From IMG/VR virus record IMGVR_UViG_3300025806_000107, positions 1-32,831 of that record: DNA of 32,831 nt; one strand, 5' to 3'. Positions 1 through 32,831 of the stretch are shown here, piece after piece. Made by a program: the position numbers and the translations under genes. The stretch comes from a virus. The notes below the pieces were generated by a model. That model did no database searches. It had not been told where the DNA came from and saw nothing but the letters and a program-made list of their open reading frames with translations. Within the stretch, counting starts at the first letter, position 1, and every line of letters begins with the position of its first letter.

Positions 1-138
1 ACCCAGTTTTTCTTGCAGCAAACGCAACAGCAAGCAGAAATTGCGGGCGCAGAATATGGTGCACTACACGCGCCCACTAAGAAACAAATTGAGGATGCGT
101 ACAAATCGGGCGGTGCAGTGAACATTCCCGGTGGTAAT
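1..138. repeat. Left copy of the terminal overlap that closes the genome
   Basis: Bases 13-138 are identical to 32706-32831 (126 bp). Bases 1-12 match 32694-32705 except at positions 3, 9 and 12. The overlap implies a circular or circularly permuted unit of 32,693 bp. The three mismatches are all third-codon-position, synonymous changes in the gene that crosses the junction. They therefore look like real strain variation rather than random error at the contig end. The overlap is probably an assembly overlap, not a biological terminal repeat, since it lies inside a coding gene. Confidence 0.93.
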
Positions 139-522
139 CTCAGCGTGTTTGACCGCGCCGCCAAGCAAGCCGCATACAATATGGCCAGCGACCAACTGGA
201 AATGCTGACCCGCGAAAAAATATCAGAGATTGTCTTGGGCGCTTACCAAAGCAAGATGCCGGCAGATAACTTGGCTGACAAAATTGACGAGGTCATTGCT
301 GGCTATGCGGGCACGTTTGACAAAGAAGCTCCAACGGTTGCGGTTCAGTTCCGCGCTAAAATGGGCATCTACGCCCATAACGAGTTCGAGGCATACAGCA
401 AGTGGAAGATTGGTCAGAACGAGTCTAATGCTTTGGCAACCTTCTTGGCACAAGACAAAGTAACGGACGCTAGCGACCTCAGAGTGAACCAAGCCCGTAC
501 TGTGACAGGGAGGAGCAACTAA
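1..522 (+). CDS. Internal virion (ejection) protein, 3' part; continues from 32571-32831
   Basis: This is the C-terminal part of a gene interrupted by the window edge. Joined to 32571-32831 it encodes 214 residues. The frame is open from base 1, and the TTG at 13 is an internal Leu codon, not a start. The protein is Gln/Ala-rich and predicted mostly helical, with no catalytic motif that I recognise. It lies after the gp14-like gene and before three larger genes, the place where T7-type phages encode internal core proteins that form the DNA ejection channel. It overlaps the next gene by one base (TAATG at 520-524). Role assigned from position and composition only. In related phages this product may be the N-terminal part of a larger protein together with the next gene. 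Confidence 0.7.
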   Translation, partial: TQFFLQQTQQQAEIAGAEYGALHAPTKKQIEDAYKSGGAVNIPGGNLSVFDRAAKQAAYNMASDQLEMLTREKISEIVLGAYQSKMPADNLADKIDEVIAGYAGTFDKEAPTVAVQFRAKMGIYAHNEFEAYSKWKIGQNESNALATFLAQDKVTDASDLRVNQARTVTGRSN

Positions 523-1754
523 TGGCTGAAAGTTTAGTTCAGCAAGGTTCCTCTATTATGATTGATGGAAAGGTCCGGCGTTCACTAAAACCAAAATTGC
601 GCTCTGCACCAGAGAATGAAGTTATAGATTTAACCGCTGAAGCAACATTTGTTGAACTTGTGCGAATGGAAAAGCTAGAGAGGTTGCAGCGATATGCCAG
701 CCTTGGCATGACATCCTCGCAAATGACGGCAGCGGCAAATAATTTTGATGCAGTTAATAAAGAAAAAATGCTTGCTTTGTTAATTGATGAAGTTTTTACC
801 GGGCCTAAAAAGTCTGAAGTAATTGACCTTATTCGCGCAGGAAAAGTAAAAAGGCTATCCGGCAATAACGCATTATACAATGCAGTTACCTATCTTCATT
901 CTGAGAATATACCGTACTATGACATAGCTAATGAACTGGCCAAACGCCGCACGGTAATGCTGCGAGAGCAAGAGGCGCTAGATGCCGCTGATGCAAGGCA
1001 AGCAATTAAAGATGAAGAGACCCATACAGCGGCGGCAACGAGGGCAATGGCAACAGGTGACCGCGCTGCGTTTGACATTGCGGTTAAAAAATTAAACTCG
1101 CTTGACCCAGAAGCCGCTGCAAAATTAGAAACTGAGTTCCTAACAATCGGTACGGTTCGCCAAACAAGCGACCCAAGTGTAGTTAACACGCTAGATACCA
1201 AGCGCCGAGAATTATCGTATGCCGATGTGGTTAATGCTAGAGGTGACTTGAGTGCAGCCGATTACACCAAGTATCTTGGACTAGTTGAAACTTACGAAAG
1301 CGCCGAGGTGGCTATTGCGGAGTCATGGCTTAAAGGTGAACTAAAGTTGACGGGTGACTTGCGTGAGATTGCCATTGGTAACCCAATGTTTGGAAAAAGC
1401 CAGTTATACGCAAGCCTAGTTGGCAAGCTGGCTTTGGCAAAATTAAACGCTGACAAGGCGGGTCAGAACTTTGATGCAATTGCAACGGCACAATCTCTAT
1501 TGGGCACACAAGCCGATGAAATTGACGAGGCGCAATTCTTAACATTGCAGAAAAATGCAAGCGGTCTAATCGGCATTTTGAACAGCCAAAAAGGTGCGGA
1601 ACTGGAAACAGACGATTATGTTGGCGCTATTGATTTCTTAAAGGACATCCAAGCGCGGCTTAAAAATGGCGACCGCATTAAAGGGTATAAAAACGAAACA
1701 CAGAGAAATGCTATAGCGGGCCAGATACAAAGACTAGAGAGGGCGATTAGATAA
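522..1754 (+). CDS. Putative internal virion protein, 410 aa, helical
   Basis: Unrecognised helical protein, Ala/Leu/Glu/Lys-rich, without a signal peptide, membrane segment or enzyme motif. Start ATG 522 overlaps the previous stop (TAATG) and its stop overlaps the next start (TAATG at 1752-1756), so it is translated in a coupled series with its neighbours. Position between the gp14-like gene and the large 715- and 1057-residue proteins suggests a component of the T7-type internal core or ejection complex, roughly at the gp15 position. The first 400 bases look more A+T-rich than the flanking genes, with more AAA, ATT and TTA codons, which could mean a different recent history. It could be the C-terminal half of a split ejection protein. 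Confidence 0.65.
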   Translation: MAESLVQQGSSIMIDGKVRRSLKPKLRSAPENEVIDLTAEATFVELVRMEKLERLQRYASLGMTSSQMTAAANNFDAVNKEKMLALLIDEVFTGPKKSEVIDLIRAGKVKRLSGNNALYNAVTYLHSENIPYYDIANELAKRRTVMLREQEALDAADARQAIKDEETHTAAATRAMATGDRAAFDIAVKKLNSLDPEAAAKLETEFLTIGTVRQTSDPSVVNTLDTKRRELSYADVVNARGDLSAADYTKYLGLVETYESAEVAIAESWLKGELKLTGDLREIAIGNPMFGKSQLYASLVGKLALAKLNADKAGQNFDAIATAQSLLGTQADEIDEAQFLTLQKNASGLIGILNSQKGAELETDDYVGAIDFLKDIQARLKNGDRIKGYKNETQRNAIAGQIQRLERAIR

Positions 1755-3901
1755 TGGACCTTCTCGACGCAATCGCAGAAAGCCGGGCAGTTCGTAGCCA
1801 AGAAAGCTATGATGTCTACATAACTAAGGATGGCGCATCTTACACACCGCCACCGCCACCGCCTGGTCTTCTTAGCAAAGCTGGTGACGTTGCAATGTCT
1901 GCCGGTGAGGCTGTGGTTGATGCAGCAATGGACCCAGTTGGAACTGCAAAAGCAACTGGCAGGGCTGTGGCTGGAGGTCTGCGCGATTTCTCCCAAGGCG
2001 TCATCGACCTGAGTTCTGAACTCGGTGGCATGATTGAAACAAACGTGGGCAGCTTGGGCTATCTCAACGTGGATGAGAACGGCGTAAATTGGAGCAAAGA
2101 ACCGCCCGCCGGTGCCCAGCCAGGACAGCTTGGCGATTTACCTGATGTGCCAAAAGGCGATAGCATGGCCGAGGGCTTTGCGCGGGGGCTAGTTCAGTTC
2201 GCGGCGGGCATGGCAGCGGCCCCGGTTCGCGGTGCGGGAATGGGCGCAAATATGCTGCGCTCTGGTTTTGCTGATGCTTTGCTCGACCCAGAAGAGGGTA
2301 ACCTGTCATCATTGCTCAAAGGCATGGGTTTAGATTACGCCGTCTTGGATTACTTAGACAGCAAAGTTGACAGCGATGCAGGGCCAGAGGACCGGCTAAA
2401 AGCGCGGATATTGCAAGCGGTTGAAGGCACAGCCATCGGCGTTCCAATTGATGTGGTCATGTATGGGTTTCGCCTCATACGGTCTAACAAGGAAGCGGTC
2501 GAGGCAGTAAAAGAAACACTGGCTCAAGCACCACCGCCAACTGATACGCAAGTTATGCCTAACCAATCGTTCTTTGATAAGGCGGGTGAAGCAACTGACA
2601 GGTTTGTCACTCAAGCCGCAACTACTACTGATGAAATGGCAACTAACGCCGCCCGCGCAACTGATGAATTTGTATCACCGACCGCGCAGCCACCAGCGGG
2701 TCAGGTTGCAACTGGTGACCTTAGCAAACAGATAGATGAGGCGAGAGCAGCTTACGAAGCGTCACCGAATGACCCCCAGTTACGCCTAGACTATTTTGAT
2801 TTACGCAAGCAACGCGATGCTGACCCGGTGGCGCAAGCGCAACCGCCCACTGACGCAGAGCCTGGCATCATTGCATTTCACGGTTCGGCGGCTGACTTTG
2901 ACCAGTTCCGGCTTGAAAAGATTGGCACAGGCGAAGGGGCGCAAGCGTATGGCTATGGGCTGTACTTTGCTGACCAAGAGGCCATTGCAGACTTTTACCG
3001 TGGCGCATTAACTGACGCACCATTTGACTACAAGATTGACGGGCAGTCTGTCAGTGAGATGTATCGCAATGCCGTCTATGCTGAGAATTACGAACTTGCG
3101 GACGTACTTGAACAAGTGCAATTGCATGACACGCCCAAGACATTAAAGGCGAAGTTCACAGTTGAGAACGGCTATACCCAAGAGACTGCCGACTTCGTTG
3201 CTGACCTTGATTATGACAAACTGACAGGCGTTGATGTTGATGGCAAAGAGATACCGCTTGGCCGCATATACAAAGTTGGTTTGACGCCCAAGCCAGATGA
3301 CTTGCTTGACTATGACAAGCCGCTAAGTTCTCAGTCTGAGAACGTGCAAGCTGCATTTAAAAAGGTATTTTACGATAATTTTATAAAAGGTGATGCTGAT
3401 TTAGAGGCGCTGTTTGCAAGCCCTAACGCATTATCAATGCAAGACATGGGCCTTTTCAACAAAAGCACAGGGGCACAGGCTTATAGGGAATTAGCTGACA
3501 GGCTTGGCAAAACAATAAGACCGGTGCCGCTTTCAGCGGATGGCACCATGATGCCAACTGAACAAATAGCTTCAAATGCTTTGTTTGAGGCTGGCATTCC
3601 CGGCATCAAATTCGCAGACAACGACAGCAGAAGCCAACAGTTTGTTTTAAAGCTAGATGTTCGTGGCAAGCCATACGAAACTGAACCAATTTATGCCCGC
3701 AACCTTGACGATGCTAAAAGAATAGAAGCTGATTATAAAGAAAAAGGTTTTGGCGTACAAATAGACGATAACAGAGCATTAAACTACGTCATATTTGATG
3801 ACAGCATGATTAAGATTTTAGAGAAATACGGCATCGTTGGGCCTGTCGCTATATCGGCAGCGGCGGCGTCAAAAGGTGGGCAAAAGGATGACGAGACATG
3901 A
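1754..3901 (+). CDS. Virion protein with ART-PolyVal type ADP-ribosyltransferase domain
   Basis: This is a 715-residue protein. Residues 1-260 hold a proline run (residues 33-38) and long Ala/Gly-rich stretches, then a low-complexity linker to about 350. From about 372 the sequence strongly resembles the ADP-ribosyltransferase domain of phage polyvalent proteins: FHGS with His376, then DFDQF, GTGEGAQAYGYGLYFA with Tyr404, a late GIPGIKF motif, and a closing YVIFDDSMIKIL. His and Tyr match the first two residues of the H-Y-E type NAD site; I could not place the third residue with confidence. Such enzymes move ADP-ribose from NAD to proteins or other targets. Its place among ejection-protein genes suggests delivery into the host with the DNA, as T4 Alt is. 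Stop overlaps the next start (ATGA at 3898). Family call fairly sure; virion location and target inferred. Confidence 0.8.
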   Translation: MDLLDAIAESRAVRSQESYDVYITKDGASYTPPPPPPGLLSKAGDVAMSAGEAVVDAAMDPVGTAKATGRAVAGGLRDFSQGVIDLSSELGGMIETNVGSLGYLNVDENGVNWSKEPPAGAQPGQLGDLPDVPKGDSMAEGFARGLVQFAAGMAAAPVRGAGMGANMLRSGFADALLDPEEGNLSSLLKGMGLDYAVLDYLDSKVDSDAGPEDRLKARILQAVEGTAIGVPIDVVMYGFRLIRSNKEAVEAVKETLAQAPPPTDTQVMPNQSFFDKAGEATDRFVTQAATTTDEMATNAARATDEFVSPTAQPPAGQVATGDLSKQIDEARAAYEASPNDPQLRLDYFDLRKQRDADPVAQAQPPTDAEPGIIAFHGSAADFDQFRLEKIGTGEGAQAYGYGLYFADQEAIADFYRGALTDAPFDYKIDGQSVSEMYRNAVYAENYELADVLEQVQLHDTPKTLKAKFTVENGYTQETADFVADLDYDKLTGVDVDGKEIPLGRIYKVGLTPKPDDLLDYDKPLSSQSENVQAAFKKVFYDNFIKGDADLEALFASPNALSMQDMGLFNKSTGAQAYRELADRLGKTIRPVPLSADGTMMPTEQIASNALFEAGIPGIKFADNDSRSQQFVLKLDVRGKPYETEPIYARNLDDAKRIEADYKEKGFGVQIDDNRALNYVIFDDSMIKILEKYGIVGPVAISAAAASKGGQKDDET

Positions 3902-6900
3902 GCGTAGCTGACAGCCCAATTCTTCCCCAGCCAGAAGCACAACCGCCAATGGTTGACGCCGGTGTAGCCGGTGACATGGCACCAGCAACTGAGGTCGAAC
4001 CGCAAGGCGTTGAGGTAGCGGGTCCACTCAAGGACGCGATTGGCGCGGCGGTCGGTGCAGTAGTTAAGCCGATTGATGATTTCGCCAGTAAAGCCGAGGC
4101 GCGTTCATTTGTTGATGTGCCAGAAGCTGACGTATTCCCTGGCCCCGGTGACAGCCTAGTAATTAAGGCTATGCCCAATGAAGACCTAGAACGGCTAAAT
4201 AAATCAATTGCGGGCAACTCTGGTGTTTTCAGCGCAGTCACTAACAAGCAAGCCGGTGCAGTCAACTTAGGCCGTATTGGTGAGATATTTAACGCCGCCG
4301 GTACTGATGACTTTAACCTTGAGACAGTTCTAACAAACATTAAAACAAACAATACTGAACTCTTTGCCCATCTGCGCCGTGACACTAAGTCAATGGATGA
4401 GTTGATGACATTGGCTGAAGCAACCGGCTTTGAGAAAATCGCTTACAAGTTCTTAGGTCGCAAGCCTGGCGAGGTGCTGCCCCCAGAGGAAGTGCTGGCC
4501 GGAATGGTTGGCGTTATTAAACTGGGCAAAGAAATAGAGGTCGCAGCCGAGGCCGTCATTAACTTCGCGGAAGGCTCACCCGAAAAACTTATGGCGTTTA
4601 AAAAAATGCGGATGTTAGGTGCGGTGACATCTAACCTAGCCGCTCAAGTCTCTGGCAATGTTTCAGAGTACGGGCGCGGTCTAGGCATTATATCATCAAT
4701 CTCTAAGCTAAACCTAAATGCTGGTGATTACGCAGAACAGCTAGACCGTTTTGTTGGTGAGATGGACGAGGGGATGATGGACTATCATGCCCATGTGCTT
4801 CTTTCTATGGAGAACCCCGCCGCCCGCGCCAAGTACGCCGAGAAAGGCATAATCTCCAAGACCTATGATTTTGCTATGGAGAACTATATCAATGCCATTC
4901 TTTCCGGCCCGGTTAGCCACACGGTAAACCTAGCGGGCAATATGTCATTCCAAATTATGACGCTGGCCGAGCGTGGCCTAGCTGGTCTCATTGGCAATAT
5001 TCGCACGGTTGGTGGCAGACGGGGCGAGATTGGTGACCAGGCATACATGGGCGAGGCATCGGCTGAAGCATTTGGCTTTATGATGGCACAGCGCGATGCG
5101 TTCACTTTAATGGGCAAAACATTTGTGACGGGTCAAAGTTCAGACCTTATGACAAAGATTGACCTCAAAGAACAACGCGCCGTGGGCCGCACTGACAACC
5201 TAGTTGATATTGCCAAGGGCGTATATGAAGGCGACTTTTACAAAACAGCAATTGATGCGTTTGGAATTGCTACCAGAATGTCAGGTCGATTGCTTGCGAC
5301 CGAGGATGAATATTTTAAGGTTATAACACGCCGCCGTGTGTTGTATCGTGAGGCCCACCGAGCCGCGCAAATAGCCTACCAAAGCGCAAGGAAAGCCGGG
5401 TTGTCTAGGTCAGACGCTCAGAAGCTATCTAAGAAAAAAGCCGCTGACATTATGGTCAGCCCGCCAGACGCCGTGCAAAAAATGATGGTCGATGACTCTC
5501 GGCAAATGACATTCCAAGGTCAGCCTAAAGGCTGGTTTGGGCGCATGGGACCGCTCATAAACGAGTTCCCTTTGATGAAAGTGATTGCGCCGTTTTACAA
5601 CACTCCTACTAATATAATTAATGAAGCCTTCGACCGCACACTAAACTGGTCACCAATATATCGAGCAATAAAACAGAACACAAAGGCAGGGGCTTTATTG
5701 CCCGCACTAGGTGACCGCTTTGGTGGCAACGCACCGATAGCAGGGAAAGAGATAGACCAGGCAATCTCTAAGCTGGCCATAGGTAATAGCATTGCACTTA
5801 CAATGTTTGGTATTGCCAGCAATGATGGCTATCAAGAACACCCTCCAATTATTTCCGGCTATCTAGGCGCGGTTCAAAATGTCTTTGGCCTCAAGGGCTA
5901 TGCTGGTGAGGACTACATGATTACCGGCAACATCAGTGATGACCTTTCAGCACAATACAATATCGCTGGCTCTGCCGGTGTGCCGCCTGGTTCGGTCGGC
6001 ATTTGGAACGATGAGAAAGGTGAATACGAGTTCACGACCTTTACACGCTTTGACCCAATATCTGCCCTATTGTTTATGGGGTCGGACATGGCTGAATATG
6101 TTAAGTATTCTGATGACGAGGTGGGCATTGCTGAACTGACCGCTGCCTATACTTTGGCGGTTGCAGAATACGCAACATCAATGCCTTTCCTGCAAGGTAT
6201 GTCCGATTTGGCCGAGGTGTTTTTTAACGGTCGAGGCAGTCAAGAGGATGGCATTGCCAGAGCCTTGCAGTTCCTTGGAACACAAGCGGGCACTGTTGGC
6301 ACCAATGTCTTGGGCAATGTTGACCAATCAACTCTAGGCTTGCTCAGTTATGCCAATGAGTTCTTGCGCGGTGATGAGTACCCGCTCATTAGCCAGACTA
6401 GTTTAATGGCCACGCTAGAGCGCCTTAACGACCCGGTGCAGCGTTCCACTAAATTGCCGCCAGGCACTGCCCCGTTCACCGATGACCTGTATACCGAGTT
6501 GCCGCCATTTATGACCGGGTTCTATACCGCTCTGCAAAAGGCAAAGGCCCGCAACCCTAATTTCTCAGAAGACTTGCCAAAAGGTTTGAATTTTTGGGGT
6601 GAGGAAAAGTACCAAGGGCGCGGCACTAGGCTTGAAACAATTAACCCGTTTAAAATTCAGGATGGTGCGTACTCTAGTTTAGACGAGGAACTAATTAGGT
6701 TGGCCGAGGTTGGGGCTGGTGTGTTCGGGTTCCACCGCGACCGCATAGGACAGACCAAGCTAAACAATGAACAATTTAGTATGTTCATCAGCACAATAAA
6801 TACCATTGATGACCGTGGCTATATGCCAGATGACATATACTACGATGAAAGCGAAAAACTTGTTATTGCTTTGGACAAGATGCTGACCAGCGAAGAGTAC

Positions 6901-7071
6901 GCCGATGCCATTACTGACGATGACAAGTTTGATTTGTTATCAGGAGTTTTGATTGAGCGCCGGACTTTGGCAAAGGAATACATGGCTGGGCGTCCTGGCA
7001 CTAAAAGCAAGCGAGGAATGACAGGGGTGGACATTATGCTGGAAAGCCGCCGTCAGCTTGGCGAGTTATGA
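3898..7071 (+). CDS. Large internal virion (ejection) protein, 1057 aa
   Basis: Longest gene of the genome, directly before the tail fibre gene, the position of T7 gp16, the large ejection protein that helps DNA cross the envelope. The N-terminal 80 residues are Pro/Ala/Val-rich and acidic. Around residues 333-347 is the segment LSGPVSHTVNLAGN, of the type found in the large polyvalent proteins of many phages. Several long amphipathic or hydrophobic stretches follow (for example about 620-640), without a clear classic membrane anchor. I see no lysozyme or transglycosylase motif. It ends about 50 bp before a separate promoter. The structural role is inferred from size, motif and position; no enzymatic function should be assumed. 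Confidence 0.72.
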   Translation: MSVADSPILPQPEAQPPMVDAGVAGDMAPATEVEPQGVEVAGPLKDAIGAAVGAVVKPIDDFASKAEARSFVDVPEADVFPGPGDSLVIKAMPNEDLERLNKSIAGNSGVFSAVTNKQAGAVNLGRIGEIFNAAGTDDFNLETVLTNIKTNNTELFAHLRRDTKSMDELMTLAEATGFEKIAYKFLGRKPGEVLPPEEVLAGMVGVIKLGKEIEVAAEAVINFAEGSPEKLMAFKKMRMLGAVTSNLAAQVSGNVSEYGRGLGIISSISKLNLNAGDYAEQLDRFVGEMDEGMMDYHAHVLLSMENPAARAKYAEKGIISKTYDFAMENYINAILSGPVSHTVNLAGNMSFQIMTLAERGLAGLIGNIRTVGGRRGEIGDQAYMGEASAEAFGFMMAQRDAFTLMGKTFVTGQSSDLMTKIDLKEQRAVGRTDNLVDIAKGVYEGDFYKTAIDAFGIATRMSGRLLATEDEYFKVITRRRVLYREAHRAAQIAYQSARKAGLSRSDAQKLSKKKAADIMVSPPDAVQKMMVDDSRQMTFQGQPKGWFGRMGPLINEFPLMKVIAPFYNTPTNIINEAFDRTLNWSPIYRAIKQNTKAGALLPALGDRFGGNAPIAGKEIDQAISKLAIGNSIALTMFGIASNDGYQEHPPIISGYLGAVQNVFGLKGYAGEDYMITGNISDDLSAQYNIAGSAGVPPGSVGIWNDEKGEYEFTTFTRFDPISALLFMGSDMAEYVKYSDDEVGIAELTAAYTLAVAEYATSMPFLQGMSDLAEVFFNGRGSQEDGIARALQFLGTQAGTVGTNVLGNVDQSTLGLLSYANEFLRGDEYPLISQTSLMATLERLNDPVQRSTKLPPGTAPFTDDLYTELPPFMTGFYTALQKAKARNPNFSEDLPKGLNFWGEEKYQGRGTRLETINPFKIQDGAYSSLDEELIRLAEVGAGVFGFHRDRIGQTKLNNEQFSMFISTINTIDDRGYMPDDIYYDESEKLVIALDKMLTSEEYADAITDDDKFDLLSGVLIERRTLAKEYMAGRPGTKSKRGMTGVDIMLESRRQLGEL

Positions 7072-7102: not shown

Positions 7103-7123
7103 CATTAGAAGGAAGGAATGGTA

Positions 7124-8422
7124 ATGGCTACGTTTTCTATAAGTGCCGTGGCACGAAAGGCCCAGGCGACAGCGAACGGGTCAACCACCGAGTTTTCGTT
7201 TAGCTTCTCGGTCAATGTTGAAGCAGATGTAGCGGTGTTTGTCGGCACTACGCTCAAGACAATCAGCACACACTACACGGTCAGCATCACGTCCTCGACC
7301 GGCGCGGGGTCTATCACCTTCACTAGCGGGAACACGCCAACGAACGGCCAGATAGTCACCATCATGTCCAAGACGGCACTGGCCCGGTCAAGTGTTTACA
7401 CCAGCGGCGGCACTATAAATGCCACCTCATTAGAGACAGACTTTGACACCAACATGATGTTGTTCCAGCAACAAGACGAGCGCCTAGACCGCACGATTAT
7501 TGCCCCAGTGGATGACGCCACCAGCATTGATATGACCCTGCCTAACAAGGACGCCCGCAAGGGAACAGTGTTGGGGTTCAACGCAACCAGCGGCAACCCA
7601 GAAGCTGGGCCAAGCATCACGGCAGTTCAGTCTCTGGCCGATGTAACAACTGCTATTAATTTGCTTGGCACATCTGCAGTAGTTGAAGACCTAGGCATTC
7701 TTGGAACTGCCGCAATAGTTGAAGATATGGGGTTTCTTGGAACGTCTGCAAATGTTGCGGCAATGGCCCAGCTTGGCACCTCGGCAGTCGTTGCTGATAT
7801 GGCGTTATTAGGCACGTCAGCGGTTGTTGCTGATATGGCAATATTAGGTACATCAGACGTAGTGGCAGACATGGCTATTCTTGCTACAACCGATGTTGTT
7901 GCTGATTTAAATACATTGGCTACTAGCGCAATTGTTGAAGATATGAACCTTCTAGCAACGTCAGCGGTTATTGAAGATATGAGCCTTTTGGCAACTTCAG
8001 CAGTCATTGAGGACATGGGGCTACTGGCTACGAGCGCAGTCATTGAAGACATGGGGTTGCTAGGAACGTCAGCAGTTGTTGAAGACATGGGATTGCTGGC
8101 TAACTCAACAACAATTGGCAACATGAATTTGCTTGGCACATCTGACGCTGTCGCTGACATGAATACGCTAGGTACATCTAGCAATGTGACCAATCAAAAT
8201 ACACTCGCTGGCATTAGTAGTAACATTACGACAGTCGCTGGAATCAGCGCAAACGTAACAACTGTTGCGGGTGACGCAAGCGATATTAACACTCTTGTTG
8301 CAGCCTTATCAAACATAAATTTGGTCGCATCAAACATCAACTCTGGTGTCATTGACGGCATCTTAGACTACGGCGCTGTTAACGATTCAGTGTCTTCATC
8401 AACTGACTTCGGGAGCGTATAG
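7124..8422 (+). CDS. Tail fibre protein with T7 gp17-like N-terminus and 12-residue repeats
   Basis: This protein of 432 residues binds the host surface or anchors other fibre subunits to the tail. Residues 1-130 resemble the tail-attachment domain of T7 gp17 (ANGSTTEFSFSF, then ALARSSVYTSGG and a segment ending QQQDERLDR). Residues 180-359 are fifteen 12-residue units of the type LLGTSAVVEDMG, followed by degenerate units (TTVAG) and a short C-terminal tail. Such regular repeats in fibre proteins are expected to form a trimeric rod. ATG 7124 has GGAAGG seven bases upstream; an in-frame ATG at 7118 adds two residues but sits too close to the SD. The C-terminus lacks a receptor-binding or chaperone domain, so it probably works with the next gene product. 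Confidence 0.85.
   Translation: MATFSISAVARKAQATANGSTTEFSFSFSVNVEADVAVFVGTTLKTISTHYTVSITSSTGAGSITFTSGNTPTNGQIVTIMSKTALARSSVYTSGGTINATSLETDFDTNMMLFQQQDERLDRTIIAPVDDATSIDMTLPNKDARKGTVLGFNATSGNPEAGPSITAVQSLADVTTAINLLGTSAVVEDLGILGTAAIVEDMGFLGTSANVAAMAQLGTSAVVADMALLGTSAVVADMAILGTSDVVADMAILATTDVVADLNTLATSAIVEDMNLLATSAVIEDMSLLATSAVIEDMGLLATSAVIEDMGLLGTSAVVEDMGLLANSTTIGNMNLLGTSDAVADMNTLGTSSNVTNQNTLAGISSNITTVAGISANVTTVAGDASDINTLVAALSNINLVASNINSGVIDGILDYGAVNDSVSSSTDFGSV
7661..8200 (+). repeat. Fifteen tandem 36-bp units coding 12-residue fibre repeats
   Basis: Units begin every 36 bp from 7661. The amino-acid pattern is [LTIFQ]-L-[GA]-[TN]-[ST]-x-x-[VI]-x-[DAN]-[ML]-[GNAS]. Units 9-12 (about 7949-8092) are nearly identical in protein but differ at third codon positions, so they were not copied very recently. 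The unit count could vary between strains through slippage or recombination. Confidence 0.9.
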
Positions 8423-8423
8423 C

Positions 8424-9989
8424 ATGGCTACTCAAACACAACTTAGACGTGGCACTGCCGCGCAAAACAATTCGTTTACTGGCGCTGTCGGTGAACTTAG
8501 CTACGATACAGAAAATAAAAGCGTACGGGTTCACGATGGCTCAACCGCTGGCGGCATTGAGGTAATAACAGAAGCCCACACTGGTGGTGCTACTATTACA
8601 ACTGGCGATAATACGGCACAGCTCACTCTTATATCTACTGATGCAGATGCTGCTGTTGGCCCTACTGTACAACTTTTTAGAAACAGTAGTTCTCCTGCGG
8701 ATAACGACCTTGCAGGAAACTTACTATTTGTCGCAGAAAACGATGCTTCTGAAGCAACTGTCTATGCAAACCTTGGCGCACATTTACAAGATGTTACCAA
8801 CGGCACAGAAGATGGTAAGTTTTTTATAAACACAATGGTTGCTGGCGCAGAAAAAAATCGTCTGTTTATGATCTCTACTGAAACTGTATTTAATGAAGAA
8901 AGTGCAGACCTAGACTTCCGTGTTGAATCAAATGGCAATGCTAACATGTTGTTTGTGGATGGGGGTAATAATGCTGTTGGTATTGGCACGAGTTCGCCTA
9001 GTGCGCCCATTGAAGCTGTTGGCACTACAGACATCCTTCAATTAACAGGCGAAAGTGGAAATGCCTTTGCAAGATTTACGGATAGTGACGCTAGTTCTGA
9101 TTTCTCTATTGGTGCAGATGATAGTTCTGGGGCGGGTGCAGGGGCTTTTGTATTTTACGATAGAAATAACTCAGCATATCGTATGCGGATTGACTCTGAG
9201 GGTAGCGTACTGCTGGGCGTAACATCTCAAATTGCATCAAGCAATGCTGTTCTACACATAAGTGCAGATGCTGTAGCTACAAGCGCTGGCTCAATTATGT
9301 CTAGCTGTGCCGCAACAAGTACAGTCTACCATGTGCATTTCAGAAATGGAAACGGTGGAGTGGGCGGCATTAGCACAAATGGATCATCTACTGCATATGT
9401 TACATCCTCAGACTACCGCCTAAAGACTGACGCACAGCCAATGACAGGTGCAAGTGATCGTGTGCTTGCACTGAACCCAGTTAACTTTGAGTGGATTACA
9501 GACGGCACTAGGGTTGATGGTTTCCTTGCACATGAGGCTCAAGCTGTAGTCCCAGAGTCTGTCACAGGCACCAAAGACGGCATGATGGACGAGGAGTATC
9601 AGGTATCAGCAGCAACAGGTGACATCTATACTGCTGGGGTAGAGGCAGGTTTTAACGAAGTATCCGCAGCTATTGAAGCTAGTCCTGCTTACTACGATGT
9701 AGATGGAAATATTATTAAAGCAGAAGTTATTGCCCAAGCAGCAGTCCATGAAGCCTATGACGCAGTAGACGAGGTTATTCACAGTGCAGATGTAGAGCAA
9801 CCAGAGACACTAGAGGATGGTCAGCAATGGCGGGAAACAACTCCAGAAGTCATAGGTACTCGTTCAGTCCCAGACATGCAGGGCATAGACCAGAGCAAGA
9901 TGGTCCCATTGCTTGTGGCATCACTGCAAGAAGCATTAACAGAAATTACAGCTCTAAAAACTAGGGTAGCAGCACTTGAGGCAGGATAA
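8424..9989 (+). CDS. Tail fibre/tip protein with Mtd-like N-terminus and C-terminal Peptidase S74 chaperone
   Basis: Protein of 521 residues. Residues 1-45 (TQLRRGTAAQN...GELSYDT...VRVHDGS) resemble the N-terminal domain of major tropism determinant-type and other phage fibres. The middle is a beta-rich, Asp/Ser/Gly-rich shaft. Near residue 329 the motif SDYRLK starts an S74 intramolecular chaperone, with the Ser329/Lys334 pair expected for self-cleavage, then ALNPVNFEW and GFLAHEAQAVVPE. The chaperone assembles the trimer and is cut off. A coiled coil closes the protein (LQEALTEITALKTRVAALEAG). An acidic insertion of about 100 residues lies between the HEAQ motif and the final helix. SD GGGAG lies eight bases before the ATG. 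Probably the receptor-binding subunit. No reverse transcriptase or template repeat accompanies it. Confidence 0.87.
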   Translation: MATQTQLRRGTAAQNNSFTGAVGELSYDTENKSVRVHDGSTAGGIEVITEAHTGGATITTGDNTAQLTLISTDADAAVGPTVQLFRNSSSPADNDLAGNLLFVAENDASEATVYANLGAHLQDVTNGTEDGKFFINTMVAGAEKNRLFMISTETVFNEESADLDFRVESNGNANMLFVDGGNNAVGIGTSSPSAPIEAVGTTDILQLTGESGNAFARFTDSDASSDFSIGADDSSGAGAGAFVFYDRNNSAYRMRIDSEGSVLLGVTSQIASSNAVLHISADAVATSAGSIMSSCAATSTVYHVHFRNGNGGVGGISTNGSSTAYVTSSDYRLKTDAQPMTGASDRVLALNPVNFEWITDGTRVDGFLAHEAQAVVPESVTGTKDGMMDEEYQVSAATGDIYTAGVEAGFNEVSAAIEASPAYYDVDGNIIKAEVIAQAAVHEAYDAVDEVIHSADVEQPETLEDGQQWRETTPEVIGTRSVPDMQGIDQSKMVPLLVASLQEALTEITALKTRVAALEAG

Positions 9990-21268: not shown

Positions 21269-21702
21269 TGGCTGAGAAACCAAAGAGGCGGGGGCGTACT
21301 GGTCCTCGCCCGCCACAGATGGCGATGGGTGCAATTACCAAGCGGTTGCGTGGCAGTTCCATCATTTACGACCACCGCGATGAATTGGCCTTGGAGTTAT
21401 TGGGTTTGGCCTCTGCGAAACTGACTGATGTTGTTTCGTGGGATGAGGACGGCAAGGCGCGGATCCGTGCGTTCAAGGATGTGCCGGAGCATGTGAAGGC
21501 GGCGATTAAGAAAGTGAAAATCACGCCGACTGCAAATGGTGACATCATGGAGTTTGAGATGGTCGATAAGGTCAGGGTCTTACAGATGTTGGCCAAGAGT
21601 GCTGGTCTGCTTGATAGCGAGAAGGTGGTGGATAAGCCGTCTGTAATTTCGATTGATATGATTATGCCGGAGGAGCCGGGGAAGGATAAGGAAGATGAGT
21701 GA
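21268..21702 (+). CDS. Putative terminase small subunit
   Basis: 144 residues. A basic N-terminus (EKPKRRGRTGPRPP) precedes a helical core; the C-terminal half has the pattern seen in terminase small subunits: KKVKITPTANGDIMEFEMVDKVRVLQMLAKSAGLL, then an acidic tail. It would recognise phage DNA for packaging and load the large subunit, whose gene lies two genes downstream. Overlap of 1 bp with the previous gene and 8 bp with the next. Call from pattern and position; the helix-turn-helix is not obvious. Confidence 0.65.
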   Translation: MAEKPKRRGRTGPRPPQMAMGAITKRLRGSSIIYDHRDELALELLGLASAKLTDVVSWDEDGKARIRAFKDVPEHVKAAIKKVKITPTANGDIMEFEMVDKVRVLQMLAKSAGLLDSEKVVDKPSVISIDMIMPEEPGKDKEDE

Positions 21703-22315
21703 CTTTAATTTAAAAGTGACGGTTCGCAACGCTCGTTTGTTAGATGCCATACGGGAGGTTTATGGGAGTGCTGCTGAACTAAGCCGCCAAATGGGTGAGT
21801 CGCAAAGCGCGGTTGGTAATTTAGTAACAATGAGAACTAAGCCTTACAACGCTAAAGGCTGGACGCGATTGGCTCAAGATGTTTCTGCAATGCTTTCAAA
21901 GCGTCCTGAAGACTTGTGGCCTGAGCATTTGCGTGAAGTTCAATTGCAGAAGTCATCTGCTGAAATGGTCCTTAATTTGGATGCGATGCGGAATCTTTCG
22001 GTTGAAACGTCTGATGAGGTTCGCCTTTCGCAAGTTAAAGTTTTAAGCCAATTTACAAGCGAGTTAACGCCCAAACAGCAATATATAATAACCTCAAGGT
22101 ATTTTGCTAATGCAACTCACCGCGAAATAGCAACGCATTTAGATATTTCCGCGCCACGAGTAATGCAGCTTGAAAGAATAGCTTTAAAGAAAATGCGGAA
22201 GGTGGCTGTTGATAGTGGCTATCTTCGCCGGTCTACAGCGCCTGAACATTGGCATAGTTTTTACCACGAAGGCTACGGTTTAAAAGAGCAAGCGTTTGAA
22301 ATTTTGAGCAAATGA
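21695..22315 (+). CDS. XRE-like domain joined to sigma-70 region-4-like domain
   Basis: 206 residues. Residues about 15-70 resemble an XRE/Cro helix-turn-helix (AAELSRQMGESQSAVGNLV, WTRLAQDVSAMLSKRPEDLWP). Residues about 124-172 resemble sigma region 4: LTPKQQYIITSRYF, then HREIATHLDISAPRVMQLERIALKKMRK, the helix-turn-helix that binds the -35 box. Regions 2 and 3 are missing, so it cannot work as a full sigma factor. It could steer host RNA polymerase to late promoters, or it may serve packaging, as it sits between the terminase genes. The DNA is visibly more A+T-rich than its neighbours, with many TTA, AAA and ATA codons, suggesting a separate origin. Confidence 0.6.
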   Translation: MSDFNLKVTVRNARLLDAIREVYGSAAELSRQMGESQSAVGNLVTMRTKPYNAKGWTRLAQDVSAMLSKRPEDLWPEHLREVQLQKSSAEMVLNLDAMRNLSVETSDEVRLSQVKVLSQFTSELTPKQQYIITSRYFANATHREIATHLDISAPRVMQLERIALKKMRKVAVDSGYLRRSTAPEHWHSFYHEGYGLKEQAFEILSK

Positions 22316-29609: not shown

Positions 29610-32026
29610 GCCGCACCCAACAATATCAAGCGTCCTTCACAGTCGGTGAACTGGACCCGTTGTTGCGCGGTCGCATTGACTTGCAGCAATACTATTCAAG
29701 CGTGGACCTTGCCGACAATGTTGTGTTCGAACCCCAGGGCGGGTTTAGCCGCCGCCCAGGCACCCGGTTTGTGCATGACCTTACGGCAGACAATCCCAAC
29801 AACTCGGTGGTCCTCATACCGTTTGAGTTCTCAACCACCCAGAAATTTATGATTGTGGCGTCTGCCTACAACACCAGTTCAACAATCCGCTTCCGGTTCT
29901 TCGCAGACCAGACGCAAATAGAGAACCTCAACAGCACGACCAACGAGTATATAGATTACTCGGTCGGCACATTGTACAGCGTCAGCGCCTTTGATTTACA
30001 AAAGATGTATTTTACGCAGTCAGCCGACACGCTGATTTGTACGCATGAGAACTTCGCCCCGTTTAAAATTACGCGTGGGGCGAACAACCAGACTTGGACT
30101 ATTGCAGCCCTGACCCTGACAGTTCCCAAGACGGTATTCACTGCGAACAACACCAACCCAGCGGCATCAATCACGCCGGACGGCACAACCGGCAATGTCA
30201 CAGTAAGCGCCGATGCTGACATATTCTCAGCCGCCAGCGTTGACCAGTACATCAATGTTCTCAGCGATTTTGGCCGTGCCCGCATTACCGAATATGTGAG
30301 CGCCCGCCAAGTTAGAGTAATTACCGAGGTGCCATTTGCGCGTTCTGAAACGCCCATAAACAGAACAAACACGTTCACAATAAAGGTCTTTGACCACGCC
30401 AATATTGCGACCGGCTCGACCATTGTGTTTAAGAAAAATGACGGCACAACAACTACGCTCACCAGCCTAGCTGTTGATGCTACCGACAGCGACAATGTTG
30501 ATGACACTACGCCAGACTTTGCCCCTGCGGTTGGTAACAACACGACCGCTGACCGGATTGCCACTGCTATAAATAACTGCACTGGGTTTACGGCGGCGCA
30601 ACCCGCCGGTGACACTGTTACTGTCACCAGAACGACCACTGGGGCAAATAACTTGGTAGTCACCACCAGCGACAGCACACGCTTGGCAGTCACCGATTTT
30701 GTTTCAACGCCCCAATGGGAACTTGAAGCGGGCTATGAAGACAGTTTTTCCAACAGCCGGGGATGGCCTAGAACGTGTACGTTCCATGAAGGTCGCTTGT
30801 ATCTCGGCGGCAGTGCTTCAGAACCAGCCACGCTGTTTGGTTCCAAAGTAGGTAATTTCTTTTCGTTCAAGGCATCAGAAGGGCTGGACGATGACGCCAT
30901 CAAGGTGACATTGAGCACCGACAGCGTGAACGCAATCACTGCTATGCGTAGTGGCCGTGACCTCCAGATATTCACTACCGGGGCTGAGTTCTTTGTGCCT
31001 CAAGCCGACCTCACGCCAATTACGCCGAGCAACGTAACGGTTAAGTCTGCGACACGGCGCGGGTCCAAGCTGGGACTGAGACCGCAAGCTGCCGAAGGCG
31101 GTACGCTGTTTATGTCGAAAGAAGGCAAGGCATTACGTGAAATGCTATTCTCTGATGTTGAACTTAGCTATGTGGCCAACAACATCAGCTTGCTCTGTTC
31201 GCACATGATACTGGACCCGCAACGCATGGCGCTTAGACCGGCTACAGACACCACTGAGGGCGATTTGTTGCTGGTTGTTAACGGCACATCTACAACAGGC
31301 TACAGGGCCGCTTCCACAGGCTTTGCGGGTAATATCGCGGCGTTCATGCTGAACCGCCCACAACAGATTGTGGCGGCTAGTACGTTCTCAACCGATGGTG
31401 ATTTCATCGATGTCGCGGTGGATGGCGATACCATTTATTGTATTGTCAAACGCACCATAGGCGGTACCGCCAAGTACTACATTGAAACCTTTGACGATGA
31501 CCGCACGACCGATTGCAGCTTGCAATACTACGCCAACCCGGTCGCGCCTGACCAAGCACTGCCCAGCAATACAACGGCGGGGTCTCTCAGCCACATTGAG
31601 GGCGAGGTGGTCAACGTAGTGCGCGACGACATTGTTGACGCAAATGACACGGTGGCCAGCGGCAATGTCACACTGGGCGGGGTGCCTAGTGTCTATGCCG
31701 AGGTGGGCCTTCCCTTCACACCTACGGTAACAACTCAACCATTTGAGCCAAGGGCCGCGTCTGGCTCTAGTCAATCGGCACGGCGACGGGTGGTCGAGGT
31801 GACGCCGATTTTAGACAATACGCAGAACCTGACGGTTCAAGGCAAAGAGGTTCAGTTACAAACCCTGCCCCTATCCGGCACTGGGTCAGTACCAACCTTC
31901 ACCGGCGTTAAAAAACAAATGGGGTTTCTTGGCTATAGCCGTGATGCCCAGATAACAATCAGCCAATCACAGCCGGTGTTCTTCACGGTCTTGGCCCTTG
32001 ATTATAAAGTGAGTGTAGGCGCATGA
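29606..32026 (+). CDS. Tail tubular protein B (nozzle), T7 gp12-like
   Basis: 806 residues, near the 794 of T7 gp12. N-terminus QASFTVGELDPLLRGRIDLQQYYSSVDLADNVVFEPQGGFSRRPGTRFVHDL is characteristic. Residues about 195-360 form a Thr/Asn-rich insertion (TIKVFDHANIATG..TTTGANNLVVTTSDS) that looks like an added beta domain; the later part (WPRTCTFHEGRLYLGGS, MSKEGKALREMLFSD) is again conserved. Forms the tail nozzle through which the ejection proteins and DNA leave. ATGA overlaps on both sides. Confidence 0.9.
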   Translation: MSRTQQYQASFTVGELDPLLRGRIDLQQYYSSVDLADNVVFEPQGGFSRRPGTRFVHDLTADNPNNSVVLIPFEFSTTQKFMIVASAYNTSSTIRFRFFADQTQIENLNSTTNEYIDYSVGTLYSVSAFDLQKMYFTQSADTLICTHENFAPFKITRGANNQTWTIAALTLTVPKTVFTANNTNPAASITPDGTTGNVTVSADADIFSAASVDQYINVLSDFGRARITEYVSARQVRVITEVPFARSETPINRTNTFTIKVFDHANIATGSTIVFKKNDGTTTTLTSLAVDATDSDNVDDTTPDFAPAVGNNTTADRIATAINNCTGFTAAQPAGDTVTVTRTTTGANNLVVTTSDSTRLAVTDFVSTPQWELEAGYEDSFSNSRGWPRTCTFHEGRLYLGGSASEPATLFGSKVGNFFSFKASEGLDDDAIKVTLSTDSVNAITAMRSGRDLQIFTTGAEFFVPQADLTPITPSNVTVKSATRRGSKLGLRPQAAEGGTLFMSKEGKALREMLFSDVELSYVANNISLLCSHMILDPQRMALRPATDTTEGDLLLVVNGTSTTGYRAASTGFAGNIAAFMLNRPQQIVAASTFSTDGDFIDVAVDGDTIYCIVKRTIGGTAKYYIETFDDDRTTDCSLQYYANPVAPDQALPSNTTAGSLSHIEGEVVNVVRDDIVDANDTVASGNVTLGGVPSVYAEVGLPFTPTVTTQPFEPRAASGSSQSARRRVVEVTPILDNTQNLTVQGKEVQLQTLPLSGTGSVPTFTGVKKQMGFLGYSRDAQITISQSQPVFFTVLALDYKVSVGA

Positions 32027-32571
32027 GCGGAATGGAAATGGTCATTATTGGTGCGCTTGTTTCAGGTGCATCAGCGGCTGCGGAGGGCCGGGCCAAAGTC
32101 GAGGCGGCAGAGTACCAACGAAATTCCTATTACAGCAATGCCAGACAGGCCGAATTAAAAGGCCGAGTTGATGCCCTGGCTTATAAACGTGAAGGCATCG
32201 ACATCTTGAGAAACGTGCAAAAGACACTGGCCACGGCTACGGCCCGCGCTGCCAGTGGTGGCCTCGCGCCGTATATCTCTGGCGAAAGCACGGCAATGAT
32301 TAACATAGCGAGTATGCGAGGCGCGGCTGACGAGTTCAGCATACAGTCAGACAACGCCTCGCTGGCTCAAAGCATGTCGCAAATGCAAGCCGACAATCTA
32401 AGACTAGCTGGTGATACTGGTCTTCGAATGGCGCAGAAAGCTGCCAAGCGCGGGGTGATTAGCGCCGTGGTTAAGGGCGGGCTTATGGGTGCGAATAGTG
32501 GTGGATTTACCGGCAATAGTACGCAAAGTTTAGTTTCTGCGCCCGGCTATGGGCCGGTGGTGCCGACCTAA
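32023..32571 (+). CDS. Internal virion protein, T7 gp14-like
   Basis: 182 residues (T7 gp14 has 196). Small Gly/Ser/Ala-rich hydrophobic start (MEMVIIGALVSGASAAAEG), helical core with AEYQRNSYYSNARQAELKGRVDALAYKREG, and SGGLAPYISGESTAMINIASMRGAADEFS, a pattern found in many podoviral gp14-like proteins. It would form an outer-membrane pore at ejection. Overlaps: ATGA with nozzle stop, TAATG with the next gene. Confidence 0.82.
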   Translation: MSGMEMVIIGALVSGASAAAEGRAKVEAAEYQRNSYYSNARQAELKGRVDALAYKREGIDILRNVQKTLATATARAASGGLAPYISGESTAMINIASMRGAADEFSIQSDNASLAQSMSQMQADNLRLAGDTGLRMAQKAAKRGVISAVVKGGLMGANSGGFTGNSTQSLVSAPGYGPVVPT

Positions 32572-32831
32572 TGGCTGAACGTCCCACATATCAGCGCCGA
32601 GGCGCACAGCTTAGACTGCCGACATTCCAAGATGCGGTCGGTCAGGTCGGGGCGCGTGGCGCGGCACAGAAGGCTCAAGACTTGGGCCGGATGACACAGT
32701 TCTTTTTGCAGCAAACGCAACAGCAAGCAGAAATTGCGGGCGCAGAATATGGTGCACTACACGCGCCCACTAAGAAACAAATTGAGGATGCGTACAAATC
32801 GGGCGGTGCAGTGAACATTCCCGGTGGTAAT
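32571..32831 (+). CDS. Internal virion (ejection) protein, 5' part; continues at 139-522
   Basis: Starts with ATG at a TAATG overlap with the gp14-like gene and is open to the window end. Residues 1-87 are here; joined to 139-522 the product has 214 residues. Basic N-terminus (MAERPTYQRRGAQLRLP) followed by a Gln/Ala-rich helix. Same gene as 1-522. Confidence 0.75.
   Translation, partial: MAERPTYQRRGAQLRLPTFQDAVGQVGARGAAQKAQDLGRMTQFFLQQTQQQAEIAGAEYGALHAPTKKQIEDAYKSGGAVNIPGGN
32694..32831. repeat. Right copy of the terminal overlap
   Basis: Counterpart of bases 1-138 (offset 32,693). The reading frame of the gene starting at 32571 continues without interruption from this copy into base 139 onward of the left end. 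Confidence 0.93.

What the first reader, a model, noticed from the sequence alone, without database searches (positions are those of the whole stretch)
1754..3901. Virion protein carrying an ADP-ribosyltransferase domain
The ART-PolyVal pattern is clear in a gene between ejection-protein genes. If packaged, the enzyme would enter the host with the DNA and could modify host polymerase, ribosomes or defence proteins before any phage gene is expressed, as T4 Alt does, but here in a T7-type ejection series.
Basis: partly seen in the sequence, partly recalled or inferred. Interest (0 to 1): 0.62.

Follow-up and report, generated by a model that had tools for sequence, protein, structure and literature searches.

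The report
Phage-ejected ADP-ribosyltransferase with gp2-like loop domain
A small marine phage carries, among the proteins it probably injects into bacteria, an NAD-using modifying enzyme whose target-facing loop has been replaced by a small domain related to phage T7's inhibitor of bacterial RNA polymerase, suggesting that phages retarget injected enzymes by swapping this loop.

Summary
ORF 1754-3901 (715 aa) carries a polyvalent-type ADP-ribosyltransferase (ART) domain (aa 370-700) and lies between gp15-like and gp16-like ejection genes, an order kept in many related contigs. The Pfam hit is below its curated cut-off, but 53 relatives, the invariant H-Y-N residues and a structure search against viral proteins (E to 2.6e-18, several named ART-PolyVal) settle the fold. 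Injected polyvalent ARTs were already predicted (Iyer 2017), so that part is ordinary.

It matches the T7 Gp2 host-RNA-polymerase-inhibitor family (Pfam E 4e-5; hhalign 89%, best shuffle 2%; T7 Gp2 is the top PDB fold match, not significant alone). A near-identical ART (L002) has a 7-aa loop there; a distant one (L015) has the same domain (dN/dS 0.08). Other relatives carry unrelated domains in that loop. Gp2's two polymerase-binding arginines are absent and this phage has no polymerase of its own, so classical inhibition is unlikely. Best reading: an ejected ART with an exchangeable target-docking domain, here gp2-derived. RNA polymerase as target, and packaging itself, are inferred.

The parts
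1754..3901 (+). 715-aa ejection-slot protein carrying the ART domain
1754..2683 (+). N-terminal region (aa 1-310) shared with L002 and L003; includes a polyproline stretch; probably the virion-association part (inference)
2861..3853 (+). ART domain, about aa 370-700, polyvalent H-Y type
2879..2881 (+). H376, first catalytic position, invariant in 53 aligned rows
2963..2965 (+). Y404, second catalytic position, invariant in 53 aligned rows
3632..3781 (+). Inserted gp2-like beta-beta-alpha-beta domain, aa 627-676, in the loop between the last two motif strands; GC 38% against 51% for the gene
3782..3802 (+). Core strand NYVIFDD; N677 invariant, D682 in 48 of 53: candidates for the third catalytic residue
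   Evidence: PMC5512222 places D in strand 5
522..1754 (+). Upstream ejection gene, matching the C-terminal part of a gp15-like protein that is a single ORF in relatives
3898..7071 (+). gp16-like internal virion protein, immediately downstream
   Evidence: phrog_6651 E 5.9e-11; synteny
32023..32571 (+). gp14-like internal virion protein
   Evidence: phrog_418 E 8.1e-6, PF24072 E 0.0015

Best explanation
The protein is an effector carried in the T7-type ejection series and delivered into the host with the DNA. Its C-terminal enzyme is a polyvalent-type ADP-ribosyltransferase that moves ADP-ribose from NAD to a host macromolecule. The loop just before the core strand with the third catalytic residue, which in other ARTs contacts the target, holds an exchangeable small domain of the T7 Gp2 family. 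That domain most likely docks the enzyme on its target, and the leading candidate target is host RNA polymerase, which this polymerase-less, probably temperate phage would reprogramme rather than shut off. Shown: ART domain, gene order, discrete loop domain, gp2 similarity, allelic exchange, purifying selection. Inferred: packaging, catalysis, docking, RNA polymerase as target.
For: ART fold. Ejection slot: gp16-like gene directly downstream in 26 of 71 ART loci, tail or ejection relatives upstream in 19. Discrete domain: loop is 7-11 aa in 36 of 53 rows and 47-89 aa in 17, nothing between. gp2 similarity: PF16857 E 4.4e-5 (window) and 1.1e-4 (L015), no other insert type tested alone matches it; phrog_1307 E 6.7e-4; own gp2 profile ranks the window protein and L015 first and second of 16,812 ORFs, real insert 23.2 bits against 13.4 for the best of 20,000 shuffles; hhalign 89.3% against 2.1% for the best of 200 column shuffles; insert model: T7 Gp2 chains are 4 of the top 6 PDB matches; the whole model also retrieves a Dickeya phage RNA polymerase inhibitor, prob 0.96. 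Exchange: DNA nearly identical to L002 on both sides, replaced only between GIK and NYV; insert dN/dS 0.08 against L015; GC 38% against 51%.
Against: Gp2 residues R56 and R58, needed for RNA polymerase binding and nearly invariant in the family (PMC3541766, PMC3778932), align with I and D here. The PF16857 score is below its curated cut-off (23.8 against 27). Foldseek E-values for the insert are not significant alone (best 0.46). Only two carriers of this domain were found. No virion proteomics or biochemistry. Most relatives have short loops, so the inserted domain is not needed for ART function in general.
Confidence: 0.45

Rival explanations
1. The insert is a gp2-fold domain that docks the injected ART on a host target other than RNA polymerase; the fold was reused and its polymerase-binding face lost.
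For: R56/R58 equivalents are I and D (PMC3541766); the same loop holds unrelated small domains in other relatives, so the loop may serve many targets.
Against: Similarity is specific to gp2 and spans strand 2, the helix and the start of strand 3.
Confidence: 0.3
2. The ART works on its ordinary target and the loop varies to escape host recognition or inhibition, or is neutral.
For: Near-identical L002 lives with a 7-aa loop.
Against: The insert is under strong purifying selection (dN/dS 0.08) and conserved between distant phages, the opposite of a hypervariable escape loop.
Confidence: 0.12
3. The protein is not ejected but made late in infection, acting at lysis or against superinfecting phages.
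For: No virion data; the gene lies among late genes.
Against: Overlapping position between gp15-like and gp16-like genes kept over many contigs; polyvalent ARTs are repeatedly linked to virion genes (PMC5512222, PMC9503650).
Confidence: 0.1
4. The insert is a working Gp2-type inhibitor that shuts off host RNA polymerase.
For: Family similarity.
Against: R56/R58 missing; the genome encodes no single-subunit RNA polymerase and has an integrase, so it needs host polymerase.
Confidence: 0.03

Closest known systems
ART-PolyVal (PF18760), polyvalent-protein ADP-ribosyltransferases, Tox-ART-HYD2 clade (Iyer et al. 2017, PMC5512222)
   Same: H and Y catalytic positions, D in the last motif strand, virion-gene context, predicted delivery with the DNA
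   Different: A gp2-like domain is nested in the loop before that strand; a separate slot protein in a T7-type ejection series rather than a giant multidomain protein
T7 Gp2 / RNA_pol_inhib (PF16857, phrog_1307)
   Same: beta-beta-alpha-beta order, P-[IV]-[YF]-A..L-[DE]-[DE]-A and Y...GF.V motifs
   Different: Nested in an enzyme and probably virion-delivered instead of a free early protein; R56 and R58 not conserved
T4 Alt
   Same: Same proposed use: packaged ART entering with the DNA (PMC9503650)
   Different: Alt is an R-S-E ART of a myovirus; not a close family relative
Polymorphic toxin systems (PMC3482391)
   Same: Constant N-terminus with exchangeable C-terminal modules (window and L002 against L003)
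   Different: Phage ejection context; exchange also occurs at a single loop inside the catalytic domain

Membership tests
ART-PolyVal / polyvalent ART | H in strand 1 and Y in strand 2 (FHGS...GLYF) | tested here: met
   H376 and Y404 invariant in 53 rows
ART-PolyVal / polyvalent ART | D in strand 5 | tested here: inconclusive
   D682 present, but N or S in 5 of 53 rows while N677 is invariant; which residue is catalytic was not resolved
ART-PolyVal / polyvalent ART | Pfam PF18760 score above the curated cut-off | tested here: not met
   23.1 bits against 31.2, E 1.4e-4; relatives score 22.8-30.0 bits
ART-PolyVal / polyvalent ART | Fold | tested here: met
   BFVD matches named ART-PolyVal with high significance, best overall E 2.6e-18; no significant PDB match
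ART-PolyVal / polyvalent ART | Packaged and injected | not testable with these tools
   Gene order only
T7 Gp2 (PF16857) | Sequence profile | tested here: inconclusive
   E 4.4e-5 but 23.8 bits against curated 27; hhalign 89.3%
T7 Gp2 (PF16857) | beta-beta-alpha-beta fold | tested here: inconclusive
   Predicted elements agree; T7 Gp2 is the top PDB match but E 0.46
T7 Gp2 (PF16857) | R56 and R58, binding the beta-prime jaw | tested here: not met
   Aligned residues are I and D; requirement from PMC3541766 and PMC3778932
T7 Gp2 (PF16857) | Inhibits bacterial RNA polymerase | not testable with these tools
   No biochemistry
T4 Alt family | R-S-E active site | tested here: not met
   H-Y pattern instead

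The most novel reading that the evidence does not exclude
Phages change the target of injected ADP-ribosyltransferases by exchanging small domains in the loop before the strand with the third catalytic residue; in this phage the domain is a captured Gp2 relative that brings the enzyme to host RNA polymerase, combining T4 Alt's chemistry with T7's polymerase-binding fold in one ejected protein.
Probability: 0.28. Interest if true: 0.85.

Novelty: new variant of a known kind. Interest (0 to 1): 0.6.

Why it matters
Most predicted phage-delivered ARTs have no known target. A discrete, natural, exchangeable domain at the presumed target-facing loop gives a direct handle: two near-identical natural alleles differ there. 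The gp2 similarity also names a first target to test, and suggests a general way in which injected phage enzymes could change targets.

Tried and rejected
PDB fold search with the whole ART model gave nothing significant; large insertions and the lack of a close solved member are a likely reason, and the viral library did work. phmmer against PDB sequences gave nothing significant for the protein and nothing for the insert. tblastn of the insert against 50,697 phage records gave no significant hit; the best was a host RNA polymerase inhibitor at E 0.3. Profile and DNA-pattern scans for further carriers of the gp2-like insert in viral contigs found only L015's contig again. The idea that all loop inserts share one gp2-like ancestor was rejected: types B and C do not match gp2. 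Full gp2-type shut-off was rejected for missing R56/R58 and the lack of a phage RNA polymerase. The C-terminal module of L003 matched nothing in Pfam, PHROGs or NCBIfam and no other viral contig. The supplementary mass spectrometry table of PMC10386132 could not be opened.

Full report
What is there. The window is a virus record of 32,831 bases whose first and last 138 bases match at 135 positions, so it is probably a circularly closed genome. The late genes follow the T7 plan: portal, capsid region, tail tubes, gp14-like, gp15-like, slot gene, gp16-like, tail fibre. The rest includes RecT and YqaJ recombination genes, an integrase, a resolvase and a protein with repressor and sigma region 4 matches. 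No ORF large enough to be a single-subunit RNA polymerase is left unassigned, so the phage very probably uses host polymerase. The closest portal in annotated phages is that of Methylophilales phage MEP301 at 55% identity; the host of the window is not known.

The finding. ORF 1754-3901 encodes 715 aa. ART-PolyVal matches at E 1.4e-4 but below the Pfam cut-off. A profile scan found 206 relatives in viral contigs. In 53 aligned rows H376, Y404 and N677 never vary, and D682 is D in 48. The AF2 model matches viral proteins strongly, several of them named ART-PolyVal. So the ART domain is real. Iyer et al. 2017 (PMC5512222) describe this ART clade with H, Y and D in strands 1, 2 and 5 and predict that such proteins are injected; which of N677 and D682 is the third catalytic residue was not settled here.

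Ejection slot. Of 71 ART loci examined, 26 have a gp16-like gene directly after the ART gene and 19 have tail or ejection relatives upstream; many of the rest are short or cut contigs or have other neighbours. The slot is variable: L003 keeps the N-terminal 310 residues but has a different C-terminal module, and L094, L098, L099 and L100 hold other proteins there. This is good evidence for an effector slot in the ejection series, but not proof of packaging.

The loop domain. Between R626 and N677, just before the core strand NYVIFDD, the window has 50 residues. In 36 of 53 rows this loop has 7-11 residues and in 17 it has 47-89, with nothing between. It is therefore a discrete insertion. The window's insert matches the T7 Gp2 family: Pfam PF16857 E 4.4e-5, phrog_1307 E 6.7e-4. 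A gp2 profile built here ranks the window protein and L015 first and second of 16,812 ORFs, with the next at E 2.1, and scores the insert at 23.2 bits against 13.4 for the best of 20,000 shuffles. hhalign gives 89.3% against 2.1% for the best of 200 column shuffles, and 1.4% and 0.1% for the other two insert types. The insert modelled alone has T7 Gp2 chains at ranks 1, 3, 4 and 6 among PDB matches, though with E 0.46 at best. Each test is modest and they are not fully independent; together they make relation to Gp2 probable.

Exchange. The window and L002 ARTs differ little (synonymous divergence 0.077). At the DNA level they match on both sides and differ only from after the GIK codons to the NYV codons. 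L015, whose ART body is only 46% identical to the window's (99 of 214 aligned residues), carries the same insert, at 78.7% DNA identity over the surrounding stretch and dN/dS 0.08 within the insert. The insert has 38% GC against 51% for the gene. So the loop domain is a functional, exchangeable module, most simply acquired by recombination at the two conserved motifs that flank it; loss in L002 is not excluded.

How it probably works. In ARTs of other families the loop before the strand with the third catalytic residue helps recognise the target (general knowledge of the ARTT loop). A folded domain there would sit next to the active site and could hold the target. With a Gp2 relative, host RNA polymerase is the first candidate. 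Against it, the two arginines that Gp2 needs to bind the beta-prime jaw (PMC3541766, PMC3778932) are I and D here. A changed interface in a different host is possible but untested. A complete shut-off of host polymerase would harm this phage, so modification or redirection fits better.

Verdict. The ordinary part is an ART in an injected-protein context. The new part is the exchangeable gp2-like domain inside the ART.

Noticed in passing
L003:6976-7374: A different C-terminal module of about 130 aa on the same N-terminus, without any family match and found in no other viral contig.
   Followed up: partly
L011, L016, L021, L023, L038, L048, L071, L084, L085, L092: Two further types of small domain in the same ART loop; at best weak DUF2188 or DUF1508 matches among the inserts.
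   Followed up: partly
window 32571-32831 plus 1-522, and 522-1754: The gp15-like protein is split into two overlapping ORFs (also in L002) but is one ORF of about 600 aa in relatives.
   Followed up: partly
window 1-138 and 32694-32831: Record ends repeat each other at 135 of 138 positions, so the genome is probably circular or circularly permuted.
   Followed up: yes
L015:2729-4000: Upstream of its ART, L015 seems to carry a second ART-like stretch (IYRGVP...GDWVTLSPEYA); a fragment of the same appears in L059.
   Followed up: no
window 7118-8422: Tail fibre with a T7-type N-terminus and a run of short LED repeats whose number differs in L003.
   Followed up: no
window 8424-9989: Second tail protein with an Mtd N-terminal domain and an S74 chaperone domain.
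   Followed up: no
window 21695-22315: Short protein with a repressor-like N-terminus and sigma region 4, possibly a phage transcription regulator.
   Followed up: partly
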